Origin: Romanomermis culicivorax
Lineage: Eukaryota; Nematoda; Enoplea; Mermithida; Mermithidae
Assembly (NCBI GenBank): GCA_963922205.1
Contig: CAWUHX010000081.1
Span: 62,001-126,000, forward strand
DNA length: 64,000 bases
Direction: 5' to 3'
Both the position numbers and the translations under genes were made by a program. Each line of letters opens with the position of its first letter. Within the stretch, counting starts at the first letter, position 1. The notes below the pieces were generated by a model. The model was not told the origin of the DNA. It saw only the letters and a list, made by a program, of their open reading frames with translations, and did not search any database. Shown here piece by piece: positions 3,673 through 64,000 of the stretch.

Positions 3673-3715
3673 AGCCTTTTTAATTATACGTTTTTCCTAC
3701 AAAAATGTAGAATGC

Positions 3716-33162: not shown

Positions 33163-33535
33163 AATTTTTTGTTGTTGTATTTTAATTCAGACAAATTACC
33201 ATTTGAAATCAACTTTAAAATTTCCCCATTTATCCAGCGAATTTTCAGCCAGACACACTATTTACTCTATTCAAAGGCTTTAAAAAAGTACTTTTGATCA
33301 ACTCATTCAAATTTTGATCTTTTGTTTCTAAAAGACTTACATCCATTTTCCAAAAAGATGGAGCAATTTTAACATCAAAAAAATTTGTGTTAAATTTGAT
33401 AACAAAACATTTATGATCACTAACTGTAAAATCAATTACACTGTGTGATTTATAAGAATCAGCAAGTAGTCGACTTGAATAAATTCTATCTGTTCGAGAA
33501 CCAGTTTTATGAGCGTGTGAAACATGGGTGAACAA

Positions 33536-34492
33536 CTTTAACTTTGATGATGATGATGATTTTATTTTGCAACGGCACTAGGCAATGTTAGGAGAATATA
33601 ATAAAATAATCGAATAAGTTAAATAAATATGGAATAAATATGCAGTACATTTACGAATATGCTGTGCTTGGTCAAAAAAGCATGTAGCTCTTACAGTTGA
33701 CCAAAATTGAACTTATCCAATTTAGAGCAAAAAATTTTACTATTTATAGATGCTATTATCGATTCAGGCAGTTTATTCCAAATAGGAATAACTCTATTTG
33801 TATACATAGAAGTATTTCTTGATATCAGTCCTTGGAATATCTGTTTTTAACTTCCAATTGTGGTTGGACCGGGTCTGAGAATGTGTAATGGTGCAGAAAT
33901 CACTCAATTTTACATCTACTTCATGGTATATTATCTTATATAATATAAAATAACCAAATCATTCAAACGCCTTCTACTTTCAAGTGTCTTTAACTTTAAT
34001 GTAGTTAAATGATCATTATAAGAAAGCTCAGGATAGTTGAGAACCCTTTTTGTGAAGTATTTCTGTACTTTTTCAATGACTCTGATGTTCTTAGTTGAGT
34101 GGGGTGACCAGATGGTAGTTGCATATTCCAGAATAGGTCTGACGTATGTTTTGTATGCATTAGTCAGTAAAAATTTATCTTTGCTTACAAATCGACGAAA
34201 TATAAGATATAATCTGTAGTAAGCATTCTTTATAATATGGCCTATATGTTCATCAAATTTAAAATTTTTGGTTAAAAAAATACCAAGATCTTTAACATAA
34301 TTGTCAGTATCTTCAATTATTCTATCGTCAATTTTGTATTTCTTCATTTAGTTATCAAATCCAAAATGCATTACCTTACTTTTGGAAGTAAAGAGAGTTA
34401 GTTGAGATCTTTCAGACCATCTAACAATAGATTCTAGAAATTTTTGAAGGTCCCCACTGTTTTCAGTACAGCTAAAGATTTTTCTATCATCA
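33536..34492 (-). mobile_element. 957-bp 5'-truncated Jockey/CR1-like LINE inserted in the LINE endonuclease
   Basis: Flanked by a perfect 8-bp duplication GTGAACAA (33528-33535 and 34493-34500). Read on the minus strand, the insert starts within an RT motif C of the form FTDD. It continues through the RT thumb region (with an in-frame TAA at 34348-34350) and a typical C-terminal domain (RPILEYATTIWSP, KVQKYFTKRV), then ends in an ATC-repeat tail (33545-33559). Removing the insert rejoins the endonuclease reading frame across the target. This shows the order of events: Tx1-like LINE first, Jockey-like copy later. Confidence 0.9.
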
Positions 34493-35299
34493 GTGAACAA
34501 AAACAGACTTACTTCAGGTGATCGTGGGTTATGAAATCTAAAAACATCTAAAAGATTCAATTTATTTTTAATCAACTCATAAAATATCGGCACCAGTTTC
34601 TTCTTGCTTAGAATTTCTTAAAGAATTTCGATCCAGATCTCTATTTTCAACAAAATTAAAATCACCTAGTACTAAAATTTCATCATAATGTCGAAAATTA
34701 GTCGAAATGTCCTGGTAGAGTTTCTCATAGAACGGGTTTCTTTGGGTTTCATTTGCTGGAGCATAAAGTACCAATATATAAAAAACTTTTTTCTCAACTT
34801 TGCAGATAAATGCAAAAGCTCGACCCTTAATTTCAAAAATTTTTCTCTCAATTTTCAGTCTGGAGGAAAGATTCACTAACAAAGCTATTCCTGCAGAATG
34901 TTCCAAAGGTGAAAACGACAATTTAGTTACAAAACTTTTACCAAAAGTATTCCTGAACATGAAGGAATCTCATGATTCTTATAGTGCATTTCCTGTATTT
35001 CTAAAATATCAAAATTTTTGCTTTGTTCATAAATTTGACAAATTTTCAAGTCATTTATAGTCAGCCCTGTACAGTTTAATGTGGCCACCTGTAAAGCCTT
35101 ACTCATTTAAGATCTTAAATATGACAGGCTCTACAGGGGTATTCAAGTACTGGGCTCAAAAGAACAATGCATTACCAAATTAATTAGTATGATGCTTACT
35201 TTCCTTATTTTCAGGCAACAAGTTATCAGCACTGCATTTACCATTTTTTGACATTGTAATTTTCATTGTTTTTATTTCACTGGCATATTTTTCTTTTTC

Positions 35300-48337: not shown

Positions 48338-48479
48338 GCAAGATTCACTATCGCACGCTGGAATTGGTTGCTTCTTTGCTGAGATATATGTAATTAATCG
48401 GAATACTTTTTATTTCGTTATTACTGTAGCAACGCTGTAACAAATTTAAATTTCTCCGCTTATGAATTTACGTGTCAAG

Positions 48480-49317
48480 CAGCGTTTTTTTTGTGCACGA
48501 ACATTTGTGCCAATTGGCACAAGAGGCCAAAAAAATTTGTGCCAATGGCACAAAAAATTATTTTTTACTAGAGATATACTGAAAACTGCGGAAAAGTTTT
48601 AGGCTAAAAGTTTGATGAAAAGTTGTTGTTTAACGCATTAATTTTTTGTAAAAATCGTGCCCAATCTATTTTTCAGCTAACCATGTCAGTGAGAAGAGAA
48701 AAAACTGTGCAACAAAATAGTTCACGAAATCCCAGAAGGAAATGGAATGCTGAGATAATTTAAATAGCTCTAGAATTGTTCAGGAAGTTCAAATTGATTC
48801 AATTTTCGACTACGAACGAATATCTATGTTATGTTTATTTAACAACCATGAAGACTAGAGAAAATAAAGTCGAAAATCGTGTTAATTTTCGATCGAAACA
48901 TTGTGCCATTATCAACGATATCGATTTTTCTATTTGAATCAATCAAACACAAAAAAGTAACAATTTCAGTTTTAAATCCGAATCTGACTGAATGAAGAGA
49001 GAATATTCAGAATTTCTTTTCACTCATCAATCTTGACAGCCTATAAAATTTGCTGCAACGATACTAATACACTGTTCTAAGAGAAATCGTTCGCGTTCGG
49101 GTCAAATGTACGAATCGGAAATATTATATTCATTGATTCGGCCCGGAGTGCCGAAAAATTTTTGCATTTTCAGCCCCTAAAACGTCTAAAAATCAACAAA
49201 ATTTAATGTTCGACCAGCCAAAAAATTTGTGCCAATTGGCACAAACGCTCAAAATTTTTTGTGCCATTCCAAATTTTTTTGTGCCAAAAACCATGTTTTG
49301 GCACAAAAAAAACACTG
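48480..49317. mobile_element. 838-bp hAT-like element with GTGCCA words (complete copy)
   Basis: Target duplication GTGTCAAG (48472-48479) / GTGTCGAG (49318-49325). Termini CAGCGTTTTTTTTGTGC and, inverted, CAGTGTTTTTTTTGTGC. Palindromes of TTGTGCCAATTGGCACAA type are clustered at both ends. The core is shared with 17477-18390 and 45890-46733. No ORF of note. It inserted next to the GAGTCCAT cluster. Confidence 0.9.
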
Positions 49318-49789
49318 GTGTCGAGTCCATCTAGTCAAAAATACGCAAAATGGCTAATTGGACTCGAGTTCTGAGAATACAGTAATCAGATCGATTAACT
49401 GTAGTTTTAAGTAAAATGATAAACTTGACGATGAACAGTAAAGTTAACGATAAACCATGAATTGAATGGGACTTTGATTTTGATGTATTTCTGTTACGTT
49501 TTGCAATATATTATATTATATTTTTTCAGCGCCGCTTATACTCGTTTGCAGTGGACGTTCATGCTTGTACTGGATCGATCAATCTGGATTGGAAGATATG
49601 TGATATTATTTCATTTTTAAATATTGTGATGCACATCGACAGCATTACAAAACTATATATTAATCAATACGATAAAAAATAAAATGATTTATTCAATGGG
49701 AACATTTGCATTGCTGAGATTTGCGATGATGTGGGGCGTGTAGAGACAAGGTTATAAATAGTCATTGTACTAGAACAATGTGAAGGCCG

Positions 49790-51779
49790 ATGTATACTGA
49801 TCAGCAACCCTGATCCTTGATCATGAGTTCCTGACCCTATAAGGATCAGGAAAGGAAAAGACCAGGTAAAGTTGTCCTCAACGTCCCTAAATTTGAGGAT
49901 CGGGAAGTCACATTTTACGCCATGTCACGTGTATGACATGTGGATTTGGGAGAGCTGGGGAGGTTTGGGTATCTCATCAGGTAATACCGTGTTTTAGACG
50001 TCACATTGATGGTGGACCATATCAGATTGATCCTATTACAGTGAGTAATAGGCTGTGACTCCTGATGGATACTGGCATTTTCCCCAGGCTTCCCTAAATG
50101 GCGTTGGGGCCTAACCTGGCAAATGGTGGCTATAGAGAGGTCTATAGTTGGTTCTCTCGTGTTGTCCTTGGGGTCTTGCTGTAGGGTAATGGACAACGCT
50201 GCCAGGCTAGGTGCGACAATCCCCGAGTCCTACTCAGTGAGAGTGGGGACAGGGTCACCCGTAAAATGACCTAGTTTGTGGGACCCGATTATGAACCAGA
50301 CAGCCCCTTTTTAGCCCGAACCTGAGAGGTGGAGGCCCGACTTATCTGTGGAAAACTTGGGAAACCGACTTAGGAAGGGTTTCCCAACAAATACCCCACA
50401 AATAACAATAATCCCCTGAGAAGACTCACCTAGTCCTGTTTCTCAAGCGATTCGACGCAACGGGCGGCAAGTCCCTGGATGCTTTCGGTCTTCTGGCACT
50501 GGGAGCGGGGATGCGATCCACAAACGTCCTAGCGGCGAGCGGCGACGAGCGGGAGGCGATACTCCAACGTTTTCTTCACGAACCGGGGTCGGTCAGACAC
50601 CTGGCACTGATGGGCAGCGGGTACTGTAGACGGTAAGCGGCGGACGCAGTGAACACGGGTAAATTTATGCAAATTTATTGGTAATAAGGCGGCGGACGCA
50701 CAGGTGTATAATAAAATATGCAAATTTGACGAAGGGCGGCGGACGCGGAGTTACAACCGGACGAAAGCTTGGTGAACCCAAGAATGAGCGAAAAACTAAA
50801 GAAACATGTCCTTTTAAGGACATGTTTGGCTACAGCTGCAGCTTGGGCGGAGTTTCTTGGCGCTCAAGCTAACTTCTGCAGCTAGACGCGATGCAGAAGA
50901 TGCCTATGAGCACATAGACATTTTTTCATTCACATGCGTTTAGCACTGAGGCCGGCTGCAGTGCCTATGCTAAGCATATGAACGTCTTTAGCTAAAACTT
51001 CTTAGCTAGTCGTTTTTGTGTAACAAGAACGACGCTAATTTTGATGATAAGAGGTGCATGGAGCGCACCAAAAATAGCCATGTGCTCGTGGAGCACGACT
51101 GGCGAAAGTTTTTAGCTAAAGGGCCTACTGTTGCCCGCGTTTGTAAAGAAATAAAAATACAACAAAACGAAACATAGAAATGCATGAAAAATATAAAAAC
51201 GAACGTAAAATGCATGTGTAAAAATGAAATAAACAAAAGCATGATCGAGTAATAAACGGAACATGAAACAAATAACAAAATGTCGGCATGATCAGAATCA
51301 CGTGACGTTGGAAAATTGAGCGGCACGTGACACGGCGGTTCTTCGAAAAAGGGCGTCCTCGTCCTTGCAGTGGTTAGTAGTGAGGTTTGTGCGGCGTGTC
51401 CGTGGTCGTGGGTCGTTCCAAGGTGCAACGGCGGGTGGTCGAATAGGTCTGTTGGGTTGTCAGCGGATGGAGCCTTCTTTGATCGTAATTCATTAGACGG
51501 TATGGTAACCGGAGGTTGTTGATGCGTAAAGTTGCAGACATTGAATATCCTGTGCGACAGTCTAGAACACAGAAAAGAAAAATTTTCAGGGCAGGATGTA
51601 GGCTATCGCAGAGGATGCGCCCAGCGAGGTACAGATTTTCGGGTTATTGCAGGGGATGCACCCAGTGAGGTACAGATTGTCGGGTTATCGCAGAGGATGC
51701 ACCCGGTGAAGTGTAGGCTATCGCGTGAGGATGCGCCTAAGGCCTGACGCTTTGGTTGCTGAACATTCTCTCCTATCCA
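49790..51779 (-). other. 3' non-coding region of the retroelement
   Basis: Contains three GCGGCGGACGC blocks spaced about 50 bp (50637, 50689, 50736), with ATGCAAAT octamers between them (50667-50674, 50718-50725) and a TATAATAAAATA stretch. A 41-44 bp tandem repeat of about 3.5 units (51593-51742, core GGATGCACCCAGTGAGGTA) and a segment (51331-51372) that repeats the end of the integrase ORF (51821-51862) are also present. This is where a 3' LTR is expected, but no TG..CA pair could be proven. Confidence 0.5.
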
Positions 51780-53117
51780 CTAAGATCCAGCATGGACAAG
51801 AGTGGATATTTCATGAGGGGCACGGCGGTCCTTCGAAAAAGGACGTCCTTGTCCGTAAGCGGGGACAATGAAGGGAGTGCATCTTGAATTAAGGGTCGGG
51901 AACTCTGCATCAAGATGTGGGTCAATCAAATTCGGTGTGAAGTCTGGGCTTATTGAAGGATACAACAAGGGTGCCGAATCTGTTGCCTGTGAAGTGGGAG
52001 GTGTATCCTCTGCTTCACTCAGTTGTTCAGGGGACACGTAAAGTCGAAGCTGGTTGACATGTACAGTGTCTTCCTGATCCGTCTCGAGACGAAGTGTGAC
52101 ATTAGGATATGCCACACTTGTTACAAGGTAGGGCCCATCGTAGATAGGCAGCAATTTAGGAGTGAGTCCACGTTTGCTGGAGGTGCGCAGTTTGAGCACC
52201 TGATCCCCTACTTTGTACGAGACATCATGTGCCTTCCGGTCGTACGACCGTGCATAGGCCTCCTGTGCTTTCTCAATCCGACTCTGGATTAAGGTTAACG
52301 CATTCGTGAAATGACGTTTGACCTCCATATCATATGAGGAAACATTAATGATATGGGCCGGAGGGTTGAATGAGAGCGCGGCATCAACAGGGAGCATGGG
52401 TGTGCGACCGTACATGAGCTCAAAGGGCGAGTACCCTGTTGACTCATTCATGCTGATATTGACGGCAAACACAGCGTATGGTAGGTGTTCATCCCAATCG
52501 GTATGTCCTTGATGAACATACATACGTAGCCGTGTGGCTAGCGTTTGATTAGCTCTTTCCACCTCGCCGTTAGTCATCGGATGATAGGCGGTAGAGTGGA
52601 TCTTCTTCGTTGCGCAGATCGCAGTGATCTCAGTCATCAGTTTTGATGTGAAATCAGTGCCACGATCTGACTGAAGAATCTGCGGTGCCCCGTGCCGGCA
52701 GACAATTTGCGTTACAAACAGTCGGGCTATGGTGTGCGCAGTGATGTCCAGAGTAGCAAAAGCCTCGACCCATTTCGTAAAGTAGTCCATGAAGACTACG
52801 ATGAAACGGTTGCCAGCTTCGCTAGTGGTCATTGGTCCCACACAGTCGACACCTACCCGATGAAACGGTCCCGTGATCGTGATGGGTTTCAGGGTCGCAG
52901 TGGTTTTCTGTCGAGCGGGCTTATTCCGTTGGCAAAGATCACACCGCTGACAGAAGGACTTGACATCCCGACTGAGGGAAGGCCAGTGGTATCTGCGAGC
53001 AATGAGCCGCGCAGTACGTTTAGCACCAAAGTGTCCAGCTAAGATGTCATCATGGTGAGCCCGGATAATGGTAGTAACCATGGATCTGGGTATGACAATC
53101 TTATTGGACTCGCCTGT
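51780..53117 (-). CDS. Integrase, separated from pol by one TGA
   Basis: Retroelement integrase inserting the cDNA into the host genome. It has an N-terminal HHCC zinc-binding module (HH..AGHFGAKRT... CxxC in CQRCDLCQ). The rve catalytic core has Asp in GVDCVGP, Asp in LQSDRGTDF and Glu in NGEVERANQ. A C-terminal SH3-like part (VGDQVLKLR... YDGPYLV) and a Pro-rich tail follow. It is in the same frame as the preceding pol ORF, which ends in TGA at 53118-53120. The residues just after the TGA (NKIVIP...) are typical of the RNase H-integrase linker, so the protein probably formed one polyprotein. The first internal Met is at 53081. Either a nonsense mutation or stop-codon read-through would explain the break. 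Confidence 0.9.
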   Translation of the reverse strand, partial: TGESNKIVIPRSMVTTIIRAHHDDILAGHFGAKRTARLIARRYHWPSLSRDVKSFCQRCDLCQRNKPARQKTTATLKPITITGPFHRVGVDCVGPMTTSEAGNRFIVVFMDYFTKWVEAFATLDITAHTIARLFVTQIVCRHGAPQILQSDRGTDFTSKLMTEITAICATKKIHSTAYHPMTNGEVERANQTLATRLRMYVHQGHTDWDEHLPYAVFAVNISMNESTGYSPFELMYGRTPMLPVDAALSFNPPAHIINVSSYDMEVKRHFTNALTLIQSRIEKAQEAYARSYDRKAHDVSYKVGDQVLKLRTSSKRGLTPKLLPIYDGPYLVTSVAYPNVTLRLETDQEDTVHVNQLRLYVSPEQLSEAEDTPPTSQATDSAPLLYPSISPDFTPNLIDPHLDAEFPTLNSRCTPFIVPAYGQGRPFSKDRRAPHEISTLVHAGS

Positions 53118-56100
53118 TCATTTCTGAAGAACGTTATCCAACAGATGGTAGCCTCGCACATCATTCTGTTCGCCCAGAGGCTTAAGAGAGCGAATGATGT
53201 CGGCTAAATCCGGATCCTCCAGCTGAGCAGCGAAAAGGTCGGGGTGCTGCGCACCAACCGATATCTCGGCATAAGACTCTGATCGTACCGGGCGCTCCGC
53301 GCCAACAGTGATCGGTGCTGAATTACTTGAACGCGCCAGGTGCTGCACACCATCGGTCAAGGTCCTTGATCTCGCCAGGTGCTGCGCACCATCGGTGATC
53401 ATCATGACATTCCCCTCAGGTCTGTAAAGGGGAGTATCATCGATACTTTGACCGGTGAGGGAGTTAGGATCCGGCAGGCGTGATAATGCGTCAGCATTAC
53501 CATTAGACTGACCTTTTCGCGGCCGAATTGTCAGTTTGAATTCGGCGAGCGCGAGTCCACACCGGGCGATCCGAGCAGAGGGGTTAGTCTTCTCCAACAC
53601 TGCTTTGACCGCGGTATGGTCAGTTTGAACGACCACCTCGTGCTGGAAGAGGTATGGTCGAAAGTGCTTGACGAAATGGACAACAGCGAGAGTCTCCAGT
53701 TCTGTAATGGAGTAGTTTTTCTCGGCCGCTGTTAACCCTCGGCTGGCGTACGCGACAGGATGGTCGTATCCAAGTTCGTCTAACTGGCTGAGAACCGCTC
53801 CTATCCCCGAAATACTCGCATCAGTTTGAAGGATAAAGGATTTCGAAAAGTCCGGATGGCGCAGGATAGGAGGGTTGGTCAGCAGGCGGCGGAGTTCATC
53901 GAACGCCTCCTGCTGAGGTTTTGACCACTGGAAAGTAGTTTCCTTCTGTAAGAGCTTGGTTAGTGGCTCGCTGAGCCGGGCACAACCAGGGATGAAATGC
54001 CTGTAATAAGACACGAGGACTAGGAAGGACTTGATGTCTTTGGCGTTTTGTGGAATGGGTAGGTTTTGGACGGCGGCCAGCTTGGCTTGGTCAGGTTCTA
54101 GGCCGCTCTGTGAGATGCGATAGCCTAGGTACTCTACCTCTGAGTGCGAGAATTTGCACTTGCTCAGTCTGAGCTTCATTCCACCCCAGCGAAGACGGGC
54201 GAACACATCTGCCAGGTGCTCAAGCATTTGGGTGTGAGAGTTCCCGAACACCAAAATGTCGTCGAGATAGGTCAGAACCGTGCGCCATTGGATTCCAGTA
54301 AGGAGGAGGTCCATAAGGCGTTGAAATGTCCCTGGTGCGTTGCACAGGCCGAAAGGCAAATAATTGAATTCGTAAAGTCCAATAGGCGTATTAAATGCCG
54401 TCTTTTCCTTATCCGCCTCGGCAATCCGGATTGACCAATAAGCGTTAGCCTGGTCAAGGGTAGTGAAATACTTCATACCCTTGAGTGTGTCGAGAATGTC
54501 ATCTATCCGTGGGAGAGGGTAGACATCCTTTTTCGTGACCTCGTTAAGACCACAAAAGTCAACACACATACGGTGAGAACCGTTTTTCTTGCGCACCAGG
54601 ACAGTATTAGTAGCCCACGGTGACGTGCTCAGCCGAATAATACCTTTCTCCTGGAGCGCCTTGACCTCCTGCATGATGAGATCCTTTTCCTTAGGTGAGG
54701 ACCGGTAAGGGAAACGGCGGACTGGGCGGGCATCGCCCGTGCTGATTTCGTGCTGGACGAGATCAGTGGAACCTGTGTCCTTTTCATCAAGAGCATAAAG
54801 GTCGGTGTATGCAACCAGCAGATCGAGTAAGGCTGCCCGGTCCCGAGGGGAGATGTCCGGTGAGATTACAGCATTGGCCTCGACCCACTGACGATCGAGG
54901 ACAGTGTCTGAGTCGACCGGTGATTCCCATGAGGGCTTACTATGCATTTGCACATGACCGATGGTCATGTGTGGGTAGAGAACCAGGGAATGAGTATTCG
55001 GGTTAACTACTTGAAGTGGTATGTGACCGTTGGTCACGCTACTCACGCTCCCAGCAAAATATACGTGTCTTTGAGATCCCGTGAGGTGCTTCGGGAAGAA
55101 GGCTACTTCAAGTACGTTCGTATAGATTGGTGGAACAGGTACAGTGAATCGTGTCAGGGAGCGAGGCTCCAGAATTACCAAGTCCTTCAGGGGCAAGGCG
55201 CCGCGGGCAGAAGGTGGGCTGTGGATGAGACCGTCACAGGGGATTCTACTTTCCTTGAACTGGAGGAAGGATTTCTCCCAGTTCAAGCTGACACAATTTA
55301 ACCGGCCGAGGAAGTTTGTTCCGAGGACCAGTTCAGCTGAACAGTTCTCCTGTATTTGGACCTGAATCCGTTCAGAGACATCAGCTACCGTAACTGTGAC
55401 GTAGGCTGCTCCTAGCAGTGGGATCGGGGACCCATTGGCTGCGATAGGACGAGCCCTGGTTGGTGAAAGTGACAAGTTGGGCAGCTGGGCCGCTAACTTG
55501 TGGTCCAGGAGTGAGAAAAGGGCTCCTGTGTCGACCAGTGCCTTTGCTTCTACCCAGTTGTTGAGGAGAACTTTGATATGGGGTGTCCGAATATCATTTG
55601 GGTAAAAAGCAGAGACCACATGACCGGAATCAGGTGTGGTGGCACCACTAGTGTGTTTGGTCTCACCGGACCGCTTTGGAATCGGCAGTCCCGTACGATG
55701 CAATAGACCTACTAGAGCGTATCCGACGGAGGGTTCCGGGTCATTGAGGAGGGTGGACTCATCCTGTACCGTGAGTACGTGGTCTGAGTGGTCCCTTGGG
55801 CTCTGAGTAGCTCCTAGTGATTCAATCTCGGTGTCCGATAGTGGTGGCGCATTTGGCACGGGTGATGCCGGAGCATCTGAATCACTTGGCTCACAGTATC
55901 CGCCTTTCTCTAGCGTGACTGGAGAGTTTCCAGGCGGAGGTCGAGGGCAACCCGACCCGTGCAAGGTCGACAGATGACAACTTGCCCGCCTAGAAGAGGC
56001 CCGGGATCCCCTGGTTGACCCATGTGATGAGGCAATTGACGAGGCCCGTGAGTGTGGTCGAGAGATGGACGAAGCCCTGGACCGCGATCGTGATCCCAAC

Positions 56101-58457
56101 CTGTGTGAGTTTCGCGAGAGAGCACTGGTGTTCTCCCACCAGGGGTCGATCTGGTCAATCTCCGGCGTGGTCAGCAGGAGGGGTAATTCTACCGCATCCA
56201 GCCGACAAACATTACGCTGGTAGTCAAGCATAATGTTCTTGAACTGTTCTAAGAAGTCCAGTCCGAGTATGAGGTCAACAGGTGCCCAGAAGGGAGACGT
56301 AGTCTTGCACACATGGAGATGTATATCGATCCGTGTGTTCGGCTGGCGGTTTCCGGGCAACATGATTTCATATGGTCCCGAAAGAATGGTATCAATGGCT
56401 TTACCATTGATGCTCATCAATGGGTTAAAGTCGTGATGTTGCTGGAACGCCATGACCGCCTTCGGACTTTCTTTAGCCAAGGCCTTATGAAGACGTTGGC
56501 TAATGATAGTGCGGGGGCAACCCGTGTCAAGGAAAATGGGAGTTTCCTTGGTGTCCAGCAGCACGACGAAACACAGTGTGATTTGGTCAAACTGGGAAGG
56601 CATATCGTTTTGCACGTAGTGAAAACCGATCCAGCGTTGGACTTTGCGGTAAAGACCCAACGGGGAGAAACGGCTAACAAACCTGACCTGTTTGCTCCGC
56701 AGACGGTAGCTGAGATAATAAGATACACCAAGATAGGCAAGGTATCCGACACCGATCAGCACTGTCAGGGTAATTAGGATGTTAAAGATCAACTGGACCG
56801 GCCCACTCAGGACAGCATGCAAGCCCTGGGCGAGGGTGTGTTGTTGACCCGTAATAACATGGTTTGCTGCCAAACCGACACCTTCCAGAGAGGCCTTGAT
56901 GTCGGTTCCTACCCCTGCAAAGGCCTGGTAAATGGCGTCTGGTTGCAGGGATAGACCAGCGGTAAAGTTTACCAGCCAGTTGAGTACCGCTTCAATTTGC
57001 TCAGTCTTGTAAACGTACTGTTTAAAGAAGGCAAAGTTTGAAGGGGTCATCGCCAACTGGTCATGGAAGAGCGCCGGTGCCTCAAAGTGAGTGATGTTGA
57101 AACGCTGCTTCCAGAAGAGTTCCAGTGGGATGTGGCTCACATGGACCGCGCCAGACTCAGTAAACCAGCCCGAGCAATTTCGGAAAATTCCTGTAAAGTG
57201 GTGATGACACGGCACAATTGGGCTAGGTTTAATGAGATCTGGACCGCGGGGGGTGGCGAAATAGATGGTGCCGCTGACCTGTACAGGTAAGTACTTGTAG
57301 CAAACGTTTCCCACCCGGTACGAGTGGTAAACGTAGGTGGCGTTGACCTTCTGACATGGCCATATTGTCAGTGCATCGCCTGTGAATTCTGCAGTCAGGT
57401 CATTCCTCTGGAGGAATGCCCGGGCACCCAAGGTAGGGTCGAAGCGAAGCAACTGCCAAGTCAGATCAAGATAGTGTTGAGCGTGAGAGCAGAGCTCAAG
57501 CCATGTGAACCGGAAACCGTTAATTTCTGACTCCTTGATCTGCTGAGCCAAGTAGTTCAGTTTGGCATTGACAGGATCGGGACGTGTGTCCGTTGCCATT
57601 CTGAACAAGTTTTGGGTCAAATTGTATCTCCTGTGGATGCGAAGGAGAAGACCCTGATCCGTCCAGACTGTGGTGGAACGTAGTTCTGGACACAGTTGGA
57701 AGACGCGGGAGTTTCCCGGGATCTTGAGGGCAACCTGTAGATCATCGATGATGACGTGGTTCCCTGACATGGACGCAGTGTAATTTCCCTTGGGGTGATA
57801 ATGACACCGCGCCGTGAAGTTTTGTGCAGGCCAGACAATGACCCCGTCTAGGGTAGTGCACTGACCTGCAGTGGGACTGCATCCACCTACATCGCCTAAG
57901 GTGCTTAGGGCGGTAGTGCCGTCCCACAAAGCGACTTGTCCCTCCTCGATGAAGAGGTTAGTCACTGTCTTGCAGACGTCGCTGCAGCACCATTCGTACA
58001 TCACTTCCAATGTTTGGTTTGTGCTATAGAAGCCAGGGCGAATGCCGACAAGTTTTCGTGAGCCAAACATCTTAGTGCGATGTGCTAGCGTGCAAGCCGC
58101 AGGCGCTAAGTGCTGAGTGGTAATGATGTCTGCAGTAATGCCCCTAGAGCTGAAGAAACCAGTGTTGGTGCAGACTTTGCGGGTGCGCAATGTGCATTTC
58201 CATGCTGTGGTTGTAATCGGGTCTGAGCTAGGGACATACACCGTAACATTCATGCGCCGCGGGCTCCATGAAGATTGCGGTGGTTTACACTCTACACGTT
58301 GGGGTAACTCAAGTGGATGTCCGCTTCTTGAGAGACCACAAAATTGATATTGAGCCGCCGGTGCTGACAAACTCACCCCTAGAAACAGTGATGTTACCAA
58401 GGTCAATTTTATTATCGAAGACAACTGTACAAACGTGGTTTGTAAGTGTTCACACAT
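53118..58457 (-). CDS. Env-like glycoprotein fused to protease-protease-RT-RNase H
   Basis: One open frame of about 1780 codons from the ATG at 58457. (a) A hydrophobic signal peptide about 15-40 residues in, ending near SAPAA. (b) An extracellular-type domain of about 540 residues with about nine N-x-S/T sequons and many Cys. (c) A membrane anchor near 56800-56700 followed by a short basic tail (RLRSKQ). (d) A first retropepsin, DTG at 56520-56528 and ILGLDFL later. (e) A Ser/Arg-rich spacer. (f) A second retropepsin, DTG at 55524-55532 and LVLGTNFL. (g) Ty3/Gypsy RT with YLDD at 54258-54269. (h) RNase H with LQTDAS. The frame is also open upstream to 59180, but that part is Arg/Ser/Pro-rich and overlaps another ORF, so the signal-peptide Met was chosen. 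The glycoprotein family is not identified. The order puts env ahead of pol. Confidence 0.85.
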   Translation of the reverse strand: MCEHLQTTFVQLSSIIKLTLVTSLFLGVSLSAPAAQYQFCGLSRSGHPLELPQRVECKPPQSSWSPRRMNVTVYVPSSDPITTTAWKCTLRTRKVCTNTGFFSSRGITADIITTQHLAPAACTLAHRTKMFGSRKLVGIRPGFYSTNQTLEVMYEWCCSDVCKTVTNLFIEEGQVALWDGTTALSTLGDVGGCSPTAGQCTTLDGVIVWPAQNFTARCHYHPKGNYTASMSGNHVIIDDLQVALKIPGNSRVFQLCPELRSTTVWTDQGLLLRIHRRYNLTQNLFRMATDTRPDPVNAKLNYLAQQIKESEINGFRFTWLELCSHAQHYLDLTWQLLRFDPTLGARAFLQRNDLTAEFTGDALTIWPCQKVNATYVYHSYRVGNVCYKYLPVQVSGTIYFATPRGPDLIKPSPIVPCHHHFTGIFRNCSGWFTESGAVHVSHIPLELFWKQRFNITHFEAPALFHDQLAMTPSNFAFFKQYVYKTEQIEAVLNWLVNFTAGLSLQPDAIYQAFAGVGTDIKASLEGVGLAANHVITGQQHTLAQGLHAVLSGPVQLIFNILITLTVLIGVGYLAYLGVSYYLSYRLRSKQVRFVSRFSPLGLYRKVQRWIGFHYVQNDMPSQFDQITLCFVVLLDTKETPIFLDTGCPRTIISQRLHKALAKESPKAVMAFQQHHDFNPLMSINGKAIDTILSGPYEIMLPGNRQPNTRIDIHLHVCKTTSPFWAPVDLILGLDFLEQFKNIMLDYQRNVCRLDAVELPLLLTTPEIDQIDPWWENTSALSRNSHRLGSRSRSRASSISRPHSRASSIASSHGSTRGSRASSRRASCHLSTLHGSGCPRPPPGNSPVTLEKGGYCEPSDSDAPASPVPNAPPLSDTEIESLGATQSPRDHSDHVLTVQDESTLLNDPEPSVGYALVGLLHRTGLPIPKRSGETKHTSGATTPDSGHVVSAFYPNDIRTPHIKVLLNNWVEAKALVDTGALFSLLDHKLAAQLPNLSLSPTRARPIAANGSPIPLLGAAYVTVTVADVSERIQVQIQENCSAELVLGTNFLGRLNCVSLNWEKSFLQFKESRIPCDGLIHSPPSARGALPLKDLVILEPRSLTRFTVPVPPIYTNVLEVAFFPKHLTGSQRHVYFAGSVSSVTNGHIPLQVVNPNTHSLVLYPHMTIGHVQMHSKPSWESPVDSDTVLDRQWVEANAVISPDISPRDRAALLDLLVAYTDLYALDEKDTGSTDLVQHEISTGDARPVRRFPYRSSPKEKDLIMQEVKALQEKGIIRLSTSPWATNTVLVRKKNGSHRMCVDFCGLNEVTKKDVYPLPRIDDILDTLKGMKYFTTLDQANAYWSIRIAEADKEKTAFNTPIGLYEFNYLPFGLCNAPGTFQRLMDLLLTGIQWRTVLTYLDDILVFGNSHTQMLEHLADVFARLRWGGMKLRLSKCKFSHSEVEYLGYRISQSGLEPDQAKLAAVQNLPIPQNAKDIKSFLVLVSYYRHFIPGCARLSEPLTKLLQKETTFQWSKPQQEAFDELRRLLTNPPILRHPDFSKSFILQTDASISGIGAVLSQLDELGYDHPVAYASRGLTAAEKNYSITELETLAVVHFVKHFRPYLFQHEVVVQTDHTAVKAVLEKTNPSARIARCGLALAEFKLTIRPRKGQSNGNADALSRLPDPNSLTGQSIDDTPLYRPEGNVMMITDGAQHLARSRTLTDGVQHLARSSNSAPITVGAERPVRSESYAEISVGAQHPDLFAAQLEDPDLADIIRSLKPLGEQNDVRGYHLLDNVLQK

Positions 58458-58485
58458 TTTCACAAATCTGGCCTGAGGGGCAGTG

Positions 58486-59232
58486 TCAGATTTCTTCTTC
58501 GTCCCTGTCAGACGAGATGGGTTCCTGACCGGGGAAATCAAGGACCAACCCACCACACGGGTGGATTTCCCGGAAGATACCGACTTTTGGCGACCATGGG
58601 GCGACTGCCGTTGGGAAGGGTGATTCCTCAACAATGCTGACATCTTCGTTAACCGGACATAATGTCTCGTCGACGGCCATGTGTTCGACGACGGGCGACT
58701 TGGTCGCAGCGGTCGGAGATGTCTCTTGGGCTGGCGCCGGCGATTTGGCTTGGGCTGTTGCCGACGATGTATTGTGGGCTGTTGCCGGCGGTGTAGGATC
58801 ATTTGCGGGTTCCTTGGCCGGGGGCGAGGAAGCAGTAATGTCCATTTTTGTTGGCGATGTCGCGGCAACAGGTGGCGCTGCTGTCGGTGAGGTAGCGGCG
58901 ACAGCAGGCAGGAGGATCCGACTGGCCTGTTCGACTGCTCGGCGGACGGCATCGACCGAAGGCGAGGATGGCTCCCCGTCCAATAAGAACTTCTCGATGG
59001 GCGAGATTGTGATAGTCCCATCTGCAATGAACTCGAGTGCCCGTCGGGCGACGTCGGGTCGTAAGAGTCGCATTGAAACCGGTGCCGCAAGCACCACGTC
59101 GGCGGCCGTGAGCGCTTCGACATGCGATGGCTTGTTGAGCAGAGTCCACGGCAAATGCGGGTATTTCTTGGCCAGGTCAACTGACCAGATGGCCAACATC
59201 ACGTCTTGGACGGGCGATGGCGCTGTGAACAA
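58486..59232 (-). CDS. Extra Ala/Pro-rich ORF overlapping the gag end
   Basis: 248 codons in a frame different from gag and env-pol. It starts 34 bases inside the gag 3' end and stops 28 bases before the env start. The first about 100 residues look globular (LAKKYPHLPWTLLNKPSHVE, ARRALEFIADGTITISPIEK); the rest is Ala/Pro/Thr/Ser-rich, with an acidic end. It resembles no family I know. It may be reached by frameshifting from gag or by a spliced RNA, and could be a capsid-linker or accessory protein. The competing reading of the same DNA in the env frame is low-complexity Arg/Ser/Pro and is taken to be a shadow. Confidence 0.6.
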   Translation of the reverse strand: MFTAPSPVQDVMLAIWSVDLAKKYPHLPWTLLNKPSHVEALTAADVVLAAPVSMRLLRPDVARRALEFIADGTITISPIEKFLLDGEPSSPSVDAVRRAVEQASRILLPAVAATSPTAAPPVAATSPTKMDITASSPPAKEPANDPTPPATAHNTSSATAQAKSPAPAQETSPTAATKSPVVEHMAVDETLCPVNEDVSIVEESPFPTAVAPWSPKVGIFREIHPCGGLVLDFPGQEPISSDRDEEEI

Positions 59233-61028
59233 GAAATCGATAGAGTCGTGGACTGAGATAGATTTCTGGTTCCTACTCTAGGATCACCTGAAGAAGAAGG
59301 TAGTATACCTGACAAATTCATGGGCTCGACCTGGTCGAGGACTTCCGTAGCCAAATCCGTGGGGATCGAAGGCGGTGGTCCTGGAGGGATGATGCAGGCC
59401 GGTGGTGCCGAAGACGTCGTATTTGCGGCTGGAGCTGGCTCGGCAGTCTTAATCTCGGGGATGCGATACGATGCGAGGAAGTTAGCGTGGCCAACAAACT
59501 GCGGTGTCGTCGAGGGGTCCAGAGTGACCGGCATCGCATACTTTGGTGGTGGTGGTGGCAGCGGTATGTCCGATACATTTATCAGTACGGGTACCTGGGC
59601 TGCTTGGACCACTGAAAATCCAATACTGATTACGCAGACAGGATAACACTGTTGTGAAGAATCTGTCAGGTGTTCAGCGAGTGCCTCATCATCCAGGTCA
59701 AGAGGATCTGGATGAGGAGGGCCATCGGTAGCCCCAACAGCATTGTTGTGACGTATGGGCTGCCGATATTGGTTTCCCATCCCGTTAGGAGGGTGATAAC
59801 CATTTCTCTGGTGATACACATTCGTCCCCTGGGAAGAATAACCAGTATCTTGGTAGACATTCTCACCCGAGTTTGCCGGATTGCGCTGCGGACAGGCAGT
59901 TGATTGGTGCACTCGCACTTGACGACAATGAGGGCATGGCCTATCACATTGGTCCGTGGGGTGGGCACGTGTACAGCAAAAATAACAGCGACCACCGTTA
60001 GCGTCATTGTTACCGGGAGCGGCACCGGTGGGACACTGGGCCCAGCAGTCGGCGTCGCTATGTGTACACAGTCCGTGGAAGGAGCATGTTTGGAGGTGTG
60101 CTCCCGACGAGCGTCGCCCGGCGGACTGATTTGGTGTCGACGGCTGTGGAGGCGGCGTCTGTTGGATTGGCGCTGGTGCACGTTGCTGGGCCGTGAGCTT
60201 CGCTACATGGGCCGTGAGCCTGGCCATTTCCTGTTTCAAGCGGCGAACCTCATCGGCGGAGGATGACGACGTTGGAGCGTTGCTCTGACGACTGTTTGCG
60301 CTTCTGTTAGGCATATCGGGATTATATCCGGCGTGTTTAGGTTCTGAGGAGAAAACGGCGTTAGATGGAGCAGTGTACCGGATCTCGTCCTGAAAGATTT
60401 GGGATTCTGCGTAGCAGGCTGCCTTGAGTGTCTCTTCAAGAGTCGTAAACTCCCTAAACTTGATACTATCTCGGAGGACCGGCTTCAATCCTCGCAGAAA
60501 GATAGGTTTGATGATAGAATCTCGGACATCCGTCGCGAGATCTGGATACGCTACCCTGGATAGTCTCTTGAGGTGCTCAAGGTAGACTATTGCGGACTCT
60601 GTCGGCTTCTGCAGTCGATCTTGGATCAGCTGCTGATGCAGATCAGAGTCGCGCCCTACCGGAAAATCTCTCCGTAGAAAAGCCGTAAACTCTTCGTAGC
60701 GGGTAGGTATTGGAGTGCTGCTGCTGAAGTCCCGGTAGGAGGCAAGAGCAGGACCCGTGAGGCATGACTCCAGAAAGGCGATTTTATACGCATGATCCGT
60801 TTCGCTTACACCCTGGAGTGTAAAGAAACGAGTAAGATGCGACATAAAATCAGTGATAGACTCACCAAAAGCACCGGAGAAGGTGGGAGGGGCCATAAAG
60901 CTGGACACGGGACGGTGCCTCCGACCATTCATGGCCTCTAACTTTTGGTTGAGGGGTCCAAGAGCATTCTCAAATGCTGCATGGACTTTGCTCTCGATCT
61001 GTGAAGGGAGATCAGCTTCCGACTTCAT
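59199..61028 (-). CDS. Gag capsid/nucleocapsid polyprotein
   Basis: Structural protein of the retroelement, 609 codons. Residues about 40-220 match the retrotransposon capsid style (SHLTRFFTLQGVSETDHAYK, FLESCLTGPAL, YRDF, ETLKAACYAE). A coiled-coil-like segment (ADEVRRLKQEMARLTAHVAKL) follows. Nucleocapsid part has a CCHC knuckle, CYFCCTRAHPTDQC, next to further Cys/His (CSFHGLCTH, CPHC). Starts at ATG 61028. It ends in TGA at 59199-59201, in the same frame as env-pol. The overlapping ORF begins just before this stop. Confidence 0.85.
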   Translation of the reverse strand: MKSEADLPSQIESKVHAAFENALGPLNQKLEAMNGRRHRPVSSFMAPPTFSGAFGESITDFMSHLTRFFTLQGVSETDHAYKIAFLESCLTGPALASYRDFSSSTPIPTRYEEFTAFLRRDFPVGRDSDLHQQLIQDRLQKPTESAIVYLEHLKRLSRVAYPDLATDVRDSIIKPIFLRGLKPVLRDSIKFREFTTLEETLKAACYAESQIFQDEIRYTAPSNAVFSSEPKHAGYNPDMPNRSANSRQSNAPTSSSSADEVRRLKQEMARLTAHVAKLTAQQRAPAPIQQTPPPQPSTPNQSAGRRSSGAHLQTCSFHGLCTHSDADCWAQCPTGAAPGNNDANGGRCYFCCTRAHPTDQCDRPCPHCRQVRVHQSTACPQRNPANSGENVYQDTGYSSQGTNVYHQRNGYHPPNGMGNQYRQPIRHNNAVGATDGPPHPDPLDLDDEALAEHLTDSSQQCYPVCVISIGFSVVQAAQVPVLINVSDIPLPPPPPKYAMPVTLDPSTTPQFVGHANFLASYRIPEIKTAEPAPAANTTSSAPPACIIPPGPPPSIPTDLATEVLDQVEPMNLSGILPSSSGDPRVGTRNLSQSTTLSISCSQRHRPSKT

Positions 61029-62820
61029 GTCCGAGGGTTCGTTTTCCCGTAAGGTGGTTAGAACAGACGTCCTTGCCCGTGAAGCAATTAAGTCAAATTG
61101 AATAGAGAGCAGCTCACTGGTCTGTACAGGCTGGGTACTGAGACGGCAGGAACGACAGGGTGTCTCTATTGTGTAAAATGAAAGTGAGTACTACTTTTGA
61201 ATTCGCGGCGAAAGAGCGCGTGAATTCGGAAAACGCGTGCGCGACGGCGTTTGTGACGTAAGTTGATTTAGCTTAAGACTAGCGACCAAGAAAAGGAAGC
61301 TAGAATGGAATAGGATTGTAAGATGCAAGATCAGAGTACACCAGGGTGACGCAGAAGGGAGTTTATCTGGTCGCCCGTGATGGACAGAGGCATGGCCTGA
61401 GGTATGGGGGAATCGATCCCGACCAAAGATGTGGAATTGGGGCCTGGACCCGGCAATCAGAGTAGCCGAAAGGACAGAAGAATAAAGATATAAGGAGAGA
61501 AAGGCGGTTTACCTGCCGAGAAGTAAGATGAGGGATGAACCAGCTCAGGAGGGATTTTTCCTGGAAGTTCGACCGCTGTACTACTTTACAAACTTTGGGG
61601 CGAGGCGGACTCGTAGCCGGCAAGATCCTACTCACCAGGAGTAGCGCATAAAGTGGCATAAGGTGAAAAGGATGGGGTCAACTGAAAATGAACTTAAGAG
61701 GGAGCAATAAATAGGGTCAAAACTAATTTACAAACCCAGTTATGCAAAGGGGTTGCGCAGTTACGCAACGGGCCTCACTCGCCAGGAGCGATTGGGATCT
61801 CTGCATAGTGAGATGGACTATACAAGAGGTTCCGTGTTGGACGACATTCGCAGGTAACTTACAGCGGTGTCCGAAACGGGAGCCCGCATTCCGAACAGAA
61901 CGGACACTCTCCAGGAGTATTATATACAGCTGGTGGCCGGGTTTGCCGATCACTGAGATGAAATGAGGTTCGCAGGTCACACAGTGGAAGAGAGGAGGAG
62001 CACGGGTACCAAGGGTGCTATTCTGACACACTCAGTCAGTTAAAATGAATTACTCTGGATGTTTTGAGGGCGCACCCGAAAACATCTAAGGGATCATGGG
62101 TACAAGGTGTCCCTGGGTGAATATGAGTGTAAAATAACTGAGGCGGCCGCAGTTATGTATCGAGGCGTACTCAATACCTTCGCTGAGGCGGACTCAATGG
62201 TGCCTATTACATTACATGACTAACAGGGGTGGACCCCGGAGGCGGACTCTGGGTCAGTGGTGACTCTAGCGCGGGCATCGTTAAGCCAGTTAACCAAGGC
62301 GTTCGAGTGAATAAAATATGACAGGGGGTCCTATACACTCTAGGCCCAACCGGAGGCTGTGCCGCGGTCCCTCGGGAACCACTATGGCGGGGACACTAAA
62401 GAAGATCTATGTATGACAGCTCGATGAGATGAAAGAAGATGAGTGAATTTAGATAAGAAATTTACAAGAAGGTTGCTAAACCCTTGCAGACGTCAGACAC
62501 AGGCAGTACTGACTGCAAATGCCTGCCGTCGACATGAGTCAAACAACCAACCCAGCTGAGGCCGAGTGTAACTCGTTTAAACCTGCAGTTAAAGCTTGAA
62601 AACAGCCACGTGCTGATCAACAGTGCCGCTACCCGGGCCGACAACCTGATCAGCACGCAGGCTAGAGAGCATCTCAGGTAGTGTATATATGCGGACTGAT
62701 GTTTCCCAGGCATCAGCCCCCAGACATACACAAACCCTTTGACAAGAGAGGTAGGTGATAGGACCATGCGCCAGCGATCACCTACAACTCAAGTGGAATA
62801 CTCATAGGACCGACAGTAAC
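61029..62820 (-). promoter_or_regulatory. Leader and probable promoter region of the retroelement
   Basis: GC-rich non-coding DNA upstream of gag. Read on the minus strand there are TATA-like stretches GTATATAATAC (61916-61926) and GCATATATACAC (62684-62695). Either could place the transcription start downstream of the TGACGTCA array. A TGACGTAA-like site occurs at about 61255. GAGGCGGACTC recurs three times (about 61605, 62184, 62240). A primer-binding site was not identified. Confidence 0.4.
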
Positions 62821-63530
62821 CTGGTGCTGACGTCAAAAGGTAGGGGTATGAACCAACCCATGACCTTGGTGCTGACTGCAGGTGTCTGGGATAAGAGTAT
62901 TCAAGTATCATGTCGCAGTTGCAGACGCCAGGGGGTGAGTGCCTAAGGCCAACAAAACCCCTGCAGTAGCACATAATGTTACCGTTGCGGACGTCAGAAA
63001 TAGGATCCTGTGACCTCAATTCCTGCTGCGAGAACATGATACATTGTCATTGCTGACGTCAGCAATAGGGCCCTGAAGCCAACTATCGGTATACAGCAAC
63101 ACGTGATGGTGCCGTTGCTGACGTCAAAAGGTGGAACCGAGGGTCTGATACCTTAAGTCAATGACATGAGATGCAGTTGTTGCAGACGTCAGATGTGGCA
63201 CCCGTAAGACCTGCACATCTTCGAATAGTGACACGGTGCGTCACTATTGCTGACGTCACGGATGGGGTGCAGAGAACCAGCTGAACCTGTTGCAGCAACG
63301 TCAACTTCAGCTGTTGCAGACGTCAGAAGTCATTCCTGCAGGAGTGTTAACTTAAACAACAACACGTAATGTCTGTTGCTGACGTCAGGAGTAGAACCCG
63401 GAGGGCTACCCACCCCTTAAAGCAACAGCAAGTGAAGCGGCTGTTGCAGACGTCAGTGGTTGCATCCGTAAGGCTGAACCACACAACAACAACAACCCGT
63501 AACGTTGTCGTTGCTGACGTCAAAGAGCAT
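62821..63530. promoter_or_regulatory. Array of CREB/ATF-type TGACGTCA sites
   Basis: Perfect palindromes TGACGTCA at 62828, 63054, 63119, 63251, 63380 and 63515. Between them are the variants AGACGTCA (63184, 63318, 63448), GGACGTCA (62989) and AGACGCCA (62923); one more AGACGTCA lies further left at 62488. Nearly every site is preceded by GTTGC or a close variant, and the T and A forms tend to alternate, with spacing about 65-70 bp over most of the array. TGACGTCA is the cAMP-response element bound by bZIP factors of the CREB/ATF group. The array sits upstream of gag and is likely the enhancer. Confidence 0.7.
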
Positions 63531-63656
63531 GACCCGTAAAGTCTATGTTCTAGATGCAACAACCGGAAAGTAGAAGAAACAGACCTTACAGTAGGGAGAA
63601 ATAAAGAAGAGAGAAGCTTACGTAAGGGTGTCATACTGTAGCGGTGGCATCAGAAA

Positions 63657-63687
<31 letters not shown>

Positions 63688-64000
63688 GACACCTCTCAGA
63701 TAACCGAGAAAAGAAATGGGGAGAAAATAACCAAAAACGGGGAATACGAGATTTGGACATACGCGTGTTAAGTGTGTAACAGTAGGTGTAAAATTTTTGG
63801 GGCCGGAAAAGTGAGCAATACCGACAGTTTCCGCCGACATAAAAAAATACTGTACACAATTAACAAATCACAGCCACGTATGACGTCCAGAATCATATGT
63901 GGAGGGTGTACGGTATCATGGGGTCATGGACCACCGACAGTCAGGAGAGGCCGTCAACCCCTACAGCTGTGATACCAGTACCCGCGTATGGGTATACTGT
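63531..64000. other. Right edge of window, upstream part of the retroelement
   Basis: A run of more than 20 T (about 63667-63688) is followed by sequence without a recognised gene. The last bases read GGGTATACTGT, similar to the TGTATACTGATCAG at the left edge of the GC-rich block (about 49792); this is too short to prove a terminal repeat. Confidence 0.3.

What the first reader, a model, noticed from the sequence alone, without database searches (positions are those of the whole stretch)
53118..58457. Envelope-like glycoprotein placed before pol and fused to it in one frame
The sequence shows a signal peptide, a domain of about 540 residues with about nine N-glycosylation sequons, one membrane segment, then retropepsin, RT and RNase H without a stop. 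In known Gypsy/errantivirus and nematode Cer elements with env, that gene follows pol. Here the fusion would put the ectodomain in the lumen and the whole polymerase on the cytosolic side of a membrane unless cleaved. This would be a different virion assembly logic.
Basis: partly seen in the sequence, partly recalled or inferred. Interest (0 to 1): 0.88.

Follow-up and report, generated by a model that had tools for sequence, protein, structure and literature searches.

The report
Retrotransposon polyprotein with envelope in middle
A virus-like jumping element in what looks like a roundworm genome carries its envelope protein in the middle of one long protein, between the shell and the copying enzymes, instead of at the end as in known relatives; the same order recurs in several distant relatives, so it looks like a real and old arrangement.

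Summary
Confirmed and extended. The window holds a ~16.2 kb LTR element (minus strand; LTRs 1403/1424 identical). Its glycoprotein matches the Monjiviricetes (chuvirus/bornavirus-type) fusion protein (PF24664, 1.1e-14) and lies, without a stop, before retropepsin, RT and RNase H. The unit is larger than Env-Pol: 43 of 72 scored copies have an open frame of 3,040 aa or more around env, the length of Gag through integrase. Four further families in this genome, two predicted proteins from 'jgi' contigs (envelope to polymerase) and one annotated hookworm protein (Gag-like region to integrase) show env before protease and RT. Env dN/dS is 0.10. In the Gag-Env linker, stops are avoided in the Gag/Env frame (1 seen, 9.9 expected) although its residues are free, because another conserved gene overlaps there. 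Against: stops between Env and PR2 are not rarer than chance (4 seen, 5.9 expected). I infer a Gag-Env-Pol polyprotein threaded through the ER membrane by an internal signal peptide and one anchor. Ten paper searches found no such order. There is no RNA, protein or particle evidence; the AlphaFold model failed.

The parts
49920..51333 (-). 3' LTR (partner 5' LTR lies outside the window at contig C81:126665-128088, i.e. window coordinate 64665-66088)
   Evidence: 1403 of 1424 identical, one 10-base gap
51604..51726 (.). [quoted passage not shown]
51783..53117 (-). integrase (H2C2 zinc domain and core), same frame as pol, separated from it in this copy by an in-frame stop at 53118-53120
   Evidence: PF17921 1.9e-22, PF00665 6.4e-8
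53538..53927 (-). RNase H
   Evidence: PF17917/PF17919
54114..54596 (-). reverse transcriptase (YLDD, read by eye)
   Evidence: PF00078 2.9e-34
55302..55571 (-). retropepsin PR2, the protease with counterparts in the four other families, P0009, P0011, P0012, P0016 and P0122
   Evidence: PF13975 4.3e-10
56169..56603 (-). extra retropepsin-like domain PR1; no match to it in L062-L065 by tblastn
   Evidence: PF13975 0.0082 and PF09668 0.061 at the two ends, both under the curated cut-off; PDB Ddi1 0.002; dN/dS 0.125; single-sequence model unusable
56736..56792 (-). membrane anchor of Env (residues 556-574), basic on its C-terminal side
56793..58355 (-). Env ectodomain, nine sequons; PF24664 match at 57141-57572
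   Evidence: dN/dS 0.10
58356..58457 (-). internal signal peptide
   Evidence: hydropathy, and small residues at -3/-1 read by eye; position conserved, sequence not
58458..59198 (-). Gag-Env linker in the gag/env frame: residues unconstrained, stops avoided
   Evidence: dN/dS 1.41; 1 stop allele seen, 9.9 expected
58486..59199 (-). ORF2, an overlapping gene in the -1 frame relative to gag/env, 237 codons, ATG at 59199 present in 30 of 30 copies
   Evidence: dN/dS 0.243; no Pfam match, no meaningful PDB match
59216..59236 (-). 3' splice-site-like stretch just upstream of the ORF2 ATG
   Evidence: identical in 24 of 30 copies; resemblance recalled, use not shown
59202..61028 (-). gag (Ty3-type capsid; two Cys-rich knuckles read by pattern); first Met of the frame at 61028
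   Evidence: PF19259 1.4e-7; this copy has an in-frame stop at 59199-59201

Best explanation
It is a Ty3/gypsy-type LTR retroelement whose ancestor captured a monjiviricete-type (chuvirus/bornavirus-like) fusion glycoprotein between nucleocapsid and protease. Shown from sequence: one frame encodes Gag - linker - signal peptide - Env ectodomain - anchor - protease(s) - RT - RNase H - integrase; codons from Env through PR2 are under purifying selection; and the linker is kept free of stops in that frame. Inferred: one ribosome makes Gag in the cytosol; the internal signal peptide brings the nascent chain to the ER; the ectodomain enters the lumen and is glycosylated; the anchor stops transfer; and Pol is made in the cytosol. 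Signal peptidase would free Gag from Env, leaving Gag with a short membrane-bound tail, and the retropepsin would then cut Pol from the Env tail. Gag, Env and Pol would start at 1:1:1 on one membrane. In the window's family an overlapping gene, ORF2, is probably made from a separate, perhaps spliced, mRNA.
For: 43 of 72 scored copies have an open frame of 3,040 aa or more around env. Four other families in the genome (env 34-45%, pol 41-57% identical) have gag, env, PR, RT and IN in that order. Predicted proteins P0012 and P0016 (envelope to polymerase) and annotated Ancylostoma duodenale P0122 (Gag-like region to integrase) have env before PR-RT in one protein. dN/dS is 0.10 in env, 0.125 in PR1, 0.26 in the second linker, 0.12 in PR2. 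Stops are avoided in the gag/env frame across ORF2 (1 against 9.9 expected; 0 of 3000 simulations), unlike in five control frames. A third-position excess is seen in the piece upstream of env (gag end plus linker) in the L062 and L064 families. The signal peptide and anchor lie at similar places in all elements that cover them, with basic residues after the anchor. The env tree and RT tree share both pairs that the env tree resolves.
Against: No RNA, proteomic or particle data. Between Env and PR2 of the window's family stops are not avoided (PR1 2 against 3.7, linker 2 against 2.2), and 6 of 30 copies have a stop there. The low stop count in env is partly by choice, since copies were picked by their env score. 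The window's own stop at 59199-59201 lies just outside the stretch tested and would make it 2. The AlphaFold model of Env is unusable (mean pLDDT 35.6), so a class III fold rests on Pfam homology. Signal peptide and anchor were judged by hydropathy and charge, not by a trained predictor; the third-best segment reaches 1.53 in L065 while the signal peptide of L064 scores 1.59. The signal-peptide stretch shows no purifying selection (dN/dS 1.6 over 34 codons). Sequons exceed shuffles clearly only in the window's Env. Stops break the shared frame in or after gag in two of the four other pieces, and gag changes frame in a third. An env-skipping splice form is not excluded.
Confidence: 0.72

Rival explanations
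1. Env-Pol is a separate polyprotein started at its own codon, or from a spliced mRNA that joins a leader or the gag start to env; Gag is made apart.
For: Splice-site-like stretches exist near the signal peptide and before ORF2 (by eye). Cer1 makes its CERV protein from a spliced mRNA (PMC10309623, passages).
Against: The Met before the signal peptide is present in 13 of 30 copies. Stops are avoided in the gag/env frame upstream of env, and the upstream piece is codon-constrained in two other families; neither is needed if env-pol starts downstream.
Confidence: 0.1
2. Both forms are made: the full Gag-Env-Pol, and a Gag-Pol from which env is spliced out, so that Env is a minority product.
For: It would solve the 1:1:1 stoichiometry. 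P0009 is a Gag-Pol frame that lacks the ectodomain but has hydrophobic segments that look like remnants, so such a product can exist as an element.
Confidence: 0.2
3. Env is a passenger: a captured and now decaying domain inside a retrotransposon polyprotein.
For: The window's copy is broken at two places; P0009 lacks the ectodomain; 6 of 30 copies have a stop after env.
Against: dN/dS 0.10 in env over 30 copies, as strong as in PR2 (0.12); 16 Cys columns kept in 6 or more of 8 elements; no stops among 198 ectodomain alleles against 7.6 expected, though copies were picked by env score.
Confidence: 0.03
4. Env has an intracellular role (for example making VLPs bud into the ER or vesicles, or cell-cell fusion) and not entry of virions into new cells.
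For: The polyprotein layout puts Env where Gag is made; no receptor-binding or infection data exist.
Against: The whole ectodomain of a viral fusion protein is conserved.
Confidence: 0.2
5. Assembly artefact or chance fusion.
For: None found.
Against: 72 scored copies on many contigs, flanking LTRs, the same order in unrelated records.
Confidence: 0.01

Closest known systems
Cer1 of Caenorhabditis (Metaviridae/Gypsy)
   Same: Nematode Gypsy element; no stop between gag and pol; an additional regulatory protein from a spliced mRNA (PMC10309623, abstract and passages).
   Different: No Env homology; its extra ORF (CERV) follows pol.
Atlas virus and relatives (Belpaoviridae, hookworm)
   Same: A single stop-free polyprotein that includes a captured RNA-virus glycoprotein (PMC9094657, passages).
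   Different: BEL/Pao lineage with YVDN; phlebovirus-like class II Env at the C-terminus, after Pol.
Anakin (BEL/Pao of mosquitoes)
   Same: Captured chuvirus glycoprotein inside an LTR element (PMC7642597, passages).
   Different: BEL/Pao; the passages read describe env-like genes of three other BEL/Pao elements as downstream of the polyprotein, and I did not read the text on Anakin's own layout.
Errantiviruses (Gypsy, ZAM and others)
   Same: Gypsy polymerase with Env.
   Different: Env gene after pol, spliced mRNA (recalled); Env likely from baculovirus (PMC12440569, passages).
Flavivirus and alphavirus structural polyproteins
   Same: Capsid - internal signal peptide - glycoprotein ectodomain - anchor - cytosolic continuation (recalled; works like, not kin).
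   Different: No reverse transcription, unrelated proteins.
Foamy viruses (Spumaretrovirinae)
   Same: Unusual dependence of Gag assembly and release on Env (recalled; only a search listing seen).
   Different: Gene order gag-pol-env, separate mRNAs (recalled).

Membership tests
Metaviridae (Ty3/Gypsy) | PR-RT-RNase H-integrase order | tested here: met
Metaviridae (Ty3/Gypsy) | Ty3-type capsid | tested here: met
   PF19259 1.4e-7, 31.6 bits against 29.1
Metaviridae (Ty3/Gypsy) | flanking LTRs | tested here: met
Metaviridae (Ty3/Gypsy) | env, if present, after pol | tested here: not met
   env lies before PR-RT; not a defining feature, since many members have no env
Errantivirus | env downstream of pol, F-type | tested here: not met
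   order and PF24664
Belpaoviridae of the Atlas type | YVDN in RT; phlebovirus Gc-like Env at the C-terminus | tested here: not met
   YLDD; PF24664, internal
Monjiviricetes fusion glycoprotein (PF24664) | score over the curated cut-off | tested here: met
   53.8 bits against 27; 60.2, 61.6 and 46.9 in relatives
Monjiviricetes fusion glycoprotein (PF24664) | class III fusion fold | tested here: inconclusive
   AlphaFold pLDDT 35.6; weak herpes gB Pfam hit in P0122, below its cut-off
Chuviridae as the source | Env nests within chuvirus glycoproteins | not tested
   no chuvirus sequences in hand; the IMG/VR scan gave no relative of this Env
Retrovirus (infectious) | enveloped particles that infect cells | not testable with these tools
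   needs experiments

The most novel reading that the evidence does not exclude
A lineage of retrovirus-like elements that builds its particle from one membrane-threaded Gag-Env-Pol polyprotein: capsid and polymerase are tethered on the cytosolic face by the same chain whose middle is the fusion protein, host signal peptidase makes the first cut, and Env is incorporated in cis instead of being recruited. In the window's family a regulatory gene has been overprinted on the Gag-Env linker and a second protease added next to the Env tail.
Probability: 0.53. Interest if true: 0.92.

Novelty: new variant of a known kind. Interest (0 to 1): 0.84.

Why it matters
The retroviral order gag-pol-env is treated as standard, with Env made apart from a spliced mRNA (PMC10309623, passages). 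Here an LTR element carries a selected fusion protein inside the Gag-Pol polyprotein, and the order has lasted through deep divergence of the polymerase. That makes testable how Env reaches particles without a separate mRNA, how an internal signal peptide coexists with capsid assembly, and how one-to-one production of shell, envelope and enzyme is tolerated. It also shows a monjiviricete glycoprotein captured by a Gypsy element, which a 2023 survey centred on arthropods reported not finding clearly (PMC10084718, passages).

Tried and rejected
Structure of Env: AlphaFold on four sequences, mean pLDDT 35.6, no fold search made. Structure of PR1 alone: pLDDT 37.3, discarded. PDB by sequence: Env has no meaningful match, best 0.068; ORF2 likewise, best 0.068. 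Protein search with the Env piece alone found nothing; candidates were limited to 0.55-1.75 times its length, so polyproteins could not appear. A search with the Env part of P0016 returned only itself and P0122. An IMG/VR scan with Env gave none. ORF2 relatives in the four other families: none at E below 1. Rfam and tRNA scans of the window: none. Own start codon for Env: rejected on 13 of 30. Chance openness of the linker frame: 247 of 20,000 synonymous shuffles are open, then the stop test with five control frames. The same test extended to Env-PR2 did not show avoidance in PR1 or the second linker; for that I lowered the main confidence from 0.75 to 0.72 and the novel case from 0.55 to 0.53. 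P0122 falls apart from the rest in the best RT tree, but one clade is not rejected (p-AU 0.237). A genome-wide copy count was not obtained, so 72 scored of 4222 candidates is a lower bound. Host: (TTAGGC)6 occurs 22,615 times, with 5 for the reversed control, which I recall as the nematode telomere unit; the canonical 22-base SL1 was found 0 times, which counts against most chromadorean nematodes (recalled).
Full report
WHAT IS THERE. The window is C81:62001-126000 of a 359 Mb, 595-contig genome. On the minus strand lies an LTR element whose two LTRs, at window 49920-51333 and beyond the window at C81:126665-128088, are identical at 1403 of 1424 positions including one 10-base gap. The whole element is about 16.2 kb. 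Going 5' to 3' it has a long leader (about 3.6 kb), gag with a Ty3-type capsid (PF19259, 1.4e-7), the glycoprotein, two retropepsin-like domains, RT, RNase H and integrase.

WHAT THE GLYCOPROTEIN IS. It matches Pfam Monjiviricetes_fusion (PF24664) with 53.8 bits (cut-off 27) and more weakly the bornavirus G family (below its cut-off). The own-genome search with PF24664 scored 68 matches among 2320 candidates, all 68 over the cut-off, and found none in 14 control genomes. I therefore take it for a captured negative-strand RNA virus fusion protein. The class III fold is expected for that group (recalled) but not shown here: the AlphaFold model failed.

ONE FRAME FROM GAG TO INTEGRASE. A search with the Env piece scored 72 copies (of 4222 candidates), all over at least 612 of 613 residues and 96-100% identical; 43 of the 72 lie in an open frame of 3,040 aa or more, and one has a stop inside env. 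That these frames run from gag to integrase is read from their length (in the window gag, env-pol and integrase ORFs lie in one frame and add up to about 3,137 codons); I held only env with 1500 bases on each side for 30 of the 72. The window's copy is itself interrupted at the gag/linker and RNase H/integrase borders. So Env is not generally started there.

SELECTION. Over 30 of the 72 copies, variable sites in the ectodomain fall 43/20/121 on codon positions 1/2/3 and dN/dS is 0.10; PR1 0.125, the linker before PR2 0.26, PR2 0.12, gag C-terminus 0.315, signal peptide 1.6 over only 34 codons. An obligatory intron between env and protease would not show this. Between gag and env the picture is unusual. 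Variable sites peak at the third position of another frame, that of ORF2 (93 against 44 and 51), whose ATG is present in 30 of 30 copies and whose dN/dS in its own frame is 0.243; read in the gag/env frame the same stretch gives 1.41. Yet stops in the gag/env frame are avoided there: 1 allele seen, 9.9 expected given ORF2, 0 of 3000 simulations as low (first run: 1 against 10.0, 2 of 5000). The window's own stop at 59199-59201 lies just outside the tested stretch. By copies, 26 of 30 have no stop in that frame. Control frames: third frame of the same stretch 12 seen, 10.6 expected; gag +1 10 and 6.7; gag +2 8 and 5.8; env +1 3 and 6.6 (248 of 3000 as low); env +2 6 and 8.8. The gag frame gave 2 against 4.3, not significant, and the env frame 0 against 7.6, which is partly by choice because copies were picked by env score. 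I read the linker result as translation through the linker into Env, with a linker whose residues do not matter, overlapped by a separate gene. Related copies are not independent events, so the simulations overstate precision.

THE ENV-POL JOIN. 24 of 30 held pieces are open from env to their end; the six others stop at residues 625, 790, 839, 853, 856 and 856, the last two after different one-base insertions. Stop alleles are not rarer than chance in PR1 (2 against 3.7) or the PR1-PR2 linker (2 against 2.2), and 0 against 3.0 in PR2 (135 of 3000 as low). So in the window's family the join of Env to Pol rests on codon constraint and on the open copies, not on stop avoidance; the other families and proteins below carry it further.

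THE ORDER IS OLD. Pieces around env of four other families in the same genome (L062-L065; Env 34-45% and pol 41-57% identical to the window's) show gag, env, PR, RT and integrase in that order. In three of them the gag and env hits share a frame, but in two of these three a stop breaks that frame within or after gag; in L064 the gag hit changes frame within the piece, and in L065 the integrase hit does. Copies of two of these families show third-position excess upstream of env (gag end plus linker; for L064 also the signal peptide) as well as in env (L064 family, 6 copies: 39/43/75 and 42/44/146; L062 family, 10 copies: 38/24/50 and 27/22/71). The 3' part of the L062 alignment was uninformative (143/135/145, ragged copies), that of L064 gave 44/35/134; the L063 (3 copies: upstream 3/5/1, env 4/6/10) and L065 (2 copies: 18/12/24, 25/24/27) families gave no clear signal. 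Outside the genome, P0012 and P0016, predicted proteins from short 'jgi' contigs of unnamed organisms (57-59% RT identity), have PF24664 before PR and RT, and a GenBank-derived Ancylostoma duodenale protein of 2293 aa, P0122, named only 'integrase core domain protein', runs Gag-like region (no Pfam hit) - signal peptide - PF24664 - anchor - PR - RT - RNase H - integrase. Among 120 proteins with an RT motif (the search listed the best 120 of 6817), a clear membrane segment before PR occurs in P0009, P0011, P0012, P0016 and P0122; P0051 has a borderline one (1.8), a few others have a segment not placed before a PR, and many are too short at the N-terminus to tell. P0009 seems to have lost the ectodomain but kept hydrophobic remnants.

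TREES. On RT-RNase H (35 rows chosen by me: 5 from this genome and 30 of the 121 DB proteins), the window, L062-L064 and P0009, P0011, P0012, P0016, P0017, P0031 form a clade (100/100), L065 joins at 89/68, and P0122 stands apart on a long branch, though one clade with it is not rejected (p-AU 0.237). P0017 and P0031 do not reach far enough upstream to show env. The Env tree of 8 rows has no starred branch but recovers the same two pairs, window+L063 (92/95) and L062+L064 (87/98), so Env has travelled with its polymerase at least within those pairs.

HOW IT MOST LIKELY WORKS. In the elements that cover them, the two strongest hydrophobic segments are one a few residues before the first conserved Cys motif and one whose start lies 519-592 residues after that motif, with net +2 to +5 in the 15 residues after it and 0 or +1 before it; the third-best reaches 1.53 (L065) and the weakest signal peptide is 1.59 (L064). 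Four of the six signal-peptide ends show small residues at -3 and -1 (by eye). That predicts Gag in the cytosol, Env in the lumen, Pol in the cytosol. The first cut would fall to signal peptidase and the later ones to the element's retropepsin; all of this is inference. PR1, placed right after the Env tail in the window's family, may serve the Env-Pol cut; its identification is weak (Pfam 0.0082 and 0.061, PDB Ddi1 0.002).

HOST. The genome is full of (TTAGGC)n (22,615 exact six-unit matches, 5 in the reversed control), which I recall as the nematode telomere repeat; the closest annotated relative by layout is from a hookworm. The canonical SL1 22-mer was not found. I take a nematode, possibly an enoplean, as likely but not shown.

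LITERATURE. Ten searches of open-licence PubMed Central papers listed none that I recognised as describing env between gag and pol; the search for 'gag-env-pol' with retrotransposon and order returned 0 papers. Subscription papers and preprints are not held. Read in passages: PMC10309623 (also abstract), PMC9094657, PMC7642597, PMC10084718, PMC12440569 (also abstract), PMC5408684. PMC10084718 reports two nematode Jingchuvirales glycoprotein insertions and says that no clear capture by Gypsy was found.

VERDICT. A real, selected and old rearrangement of the retroviral gene order inside a known superfamily. The gene order is well supported, the single Gag-Env-Pol frame supported, and the assembly consequences are open.

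Noticed in passing
window 58486-59199 (minus): ORF2: a gene overprinted on the Gag-Env linker, with conserved ATG and a splice-acceptor-like stretch before it; no match in Pfam or PDB and none convincing in the four other families.
   Followed up: partly
window 56169-56603 (minus): A second retropepsin-like domain beside the Env tail, not found in L062-L065; nearest solved structure by sequence is Ddi1.
   Followed up: partly
window 61029-64000 (minus; runs past the window's end to about 64664): A 5' leader of about 3.6 kb between LTR and gag with roughly 130-base direct repeats (63151-63472) and no minus-strand frame over 108 aa listed apart from the one that holds gag.
   Followed up: no
window 48478-49318 and C81:129316-130150 (L001): A 92.6% identical repeat on both sides of the element, same orientation.
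   Followed up: no
L001 4226-5108 (C81:128226-129108): Very AT-rich tandem-like repeat just outside the 5' LTR (GC 11-18% in the 500-base bins from 128001 to 129000).
   Followed up: no
window 17704-17737: Interstitial TTAGGC telomere-type repeat; the genome holds very many such blocks.
   Followed up: partly
window 30573-34969 (minus): Fragments that look like non-LTR retrotransposon reverse transcriptase and endonuclease (read by eye).
   Followed up: no
window 14635-15276 and 2467-3696 (minus): Exons that look like BMS1 and an FG-repeat nucleoporin (read by eye).
   Followed up: no
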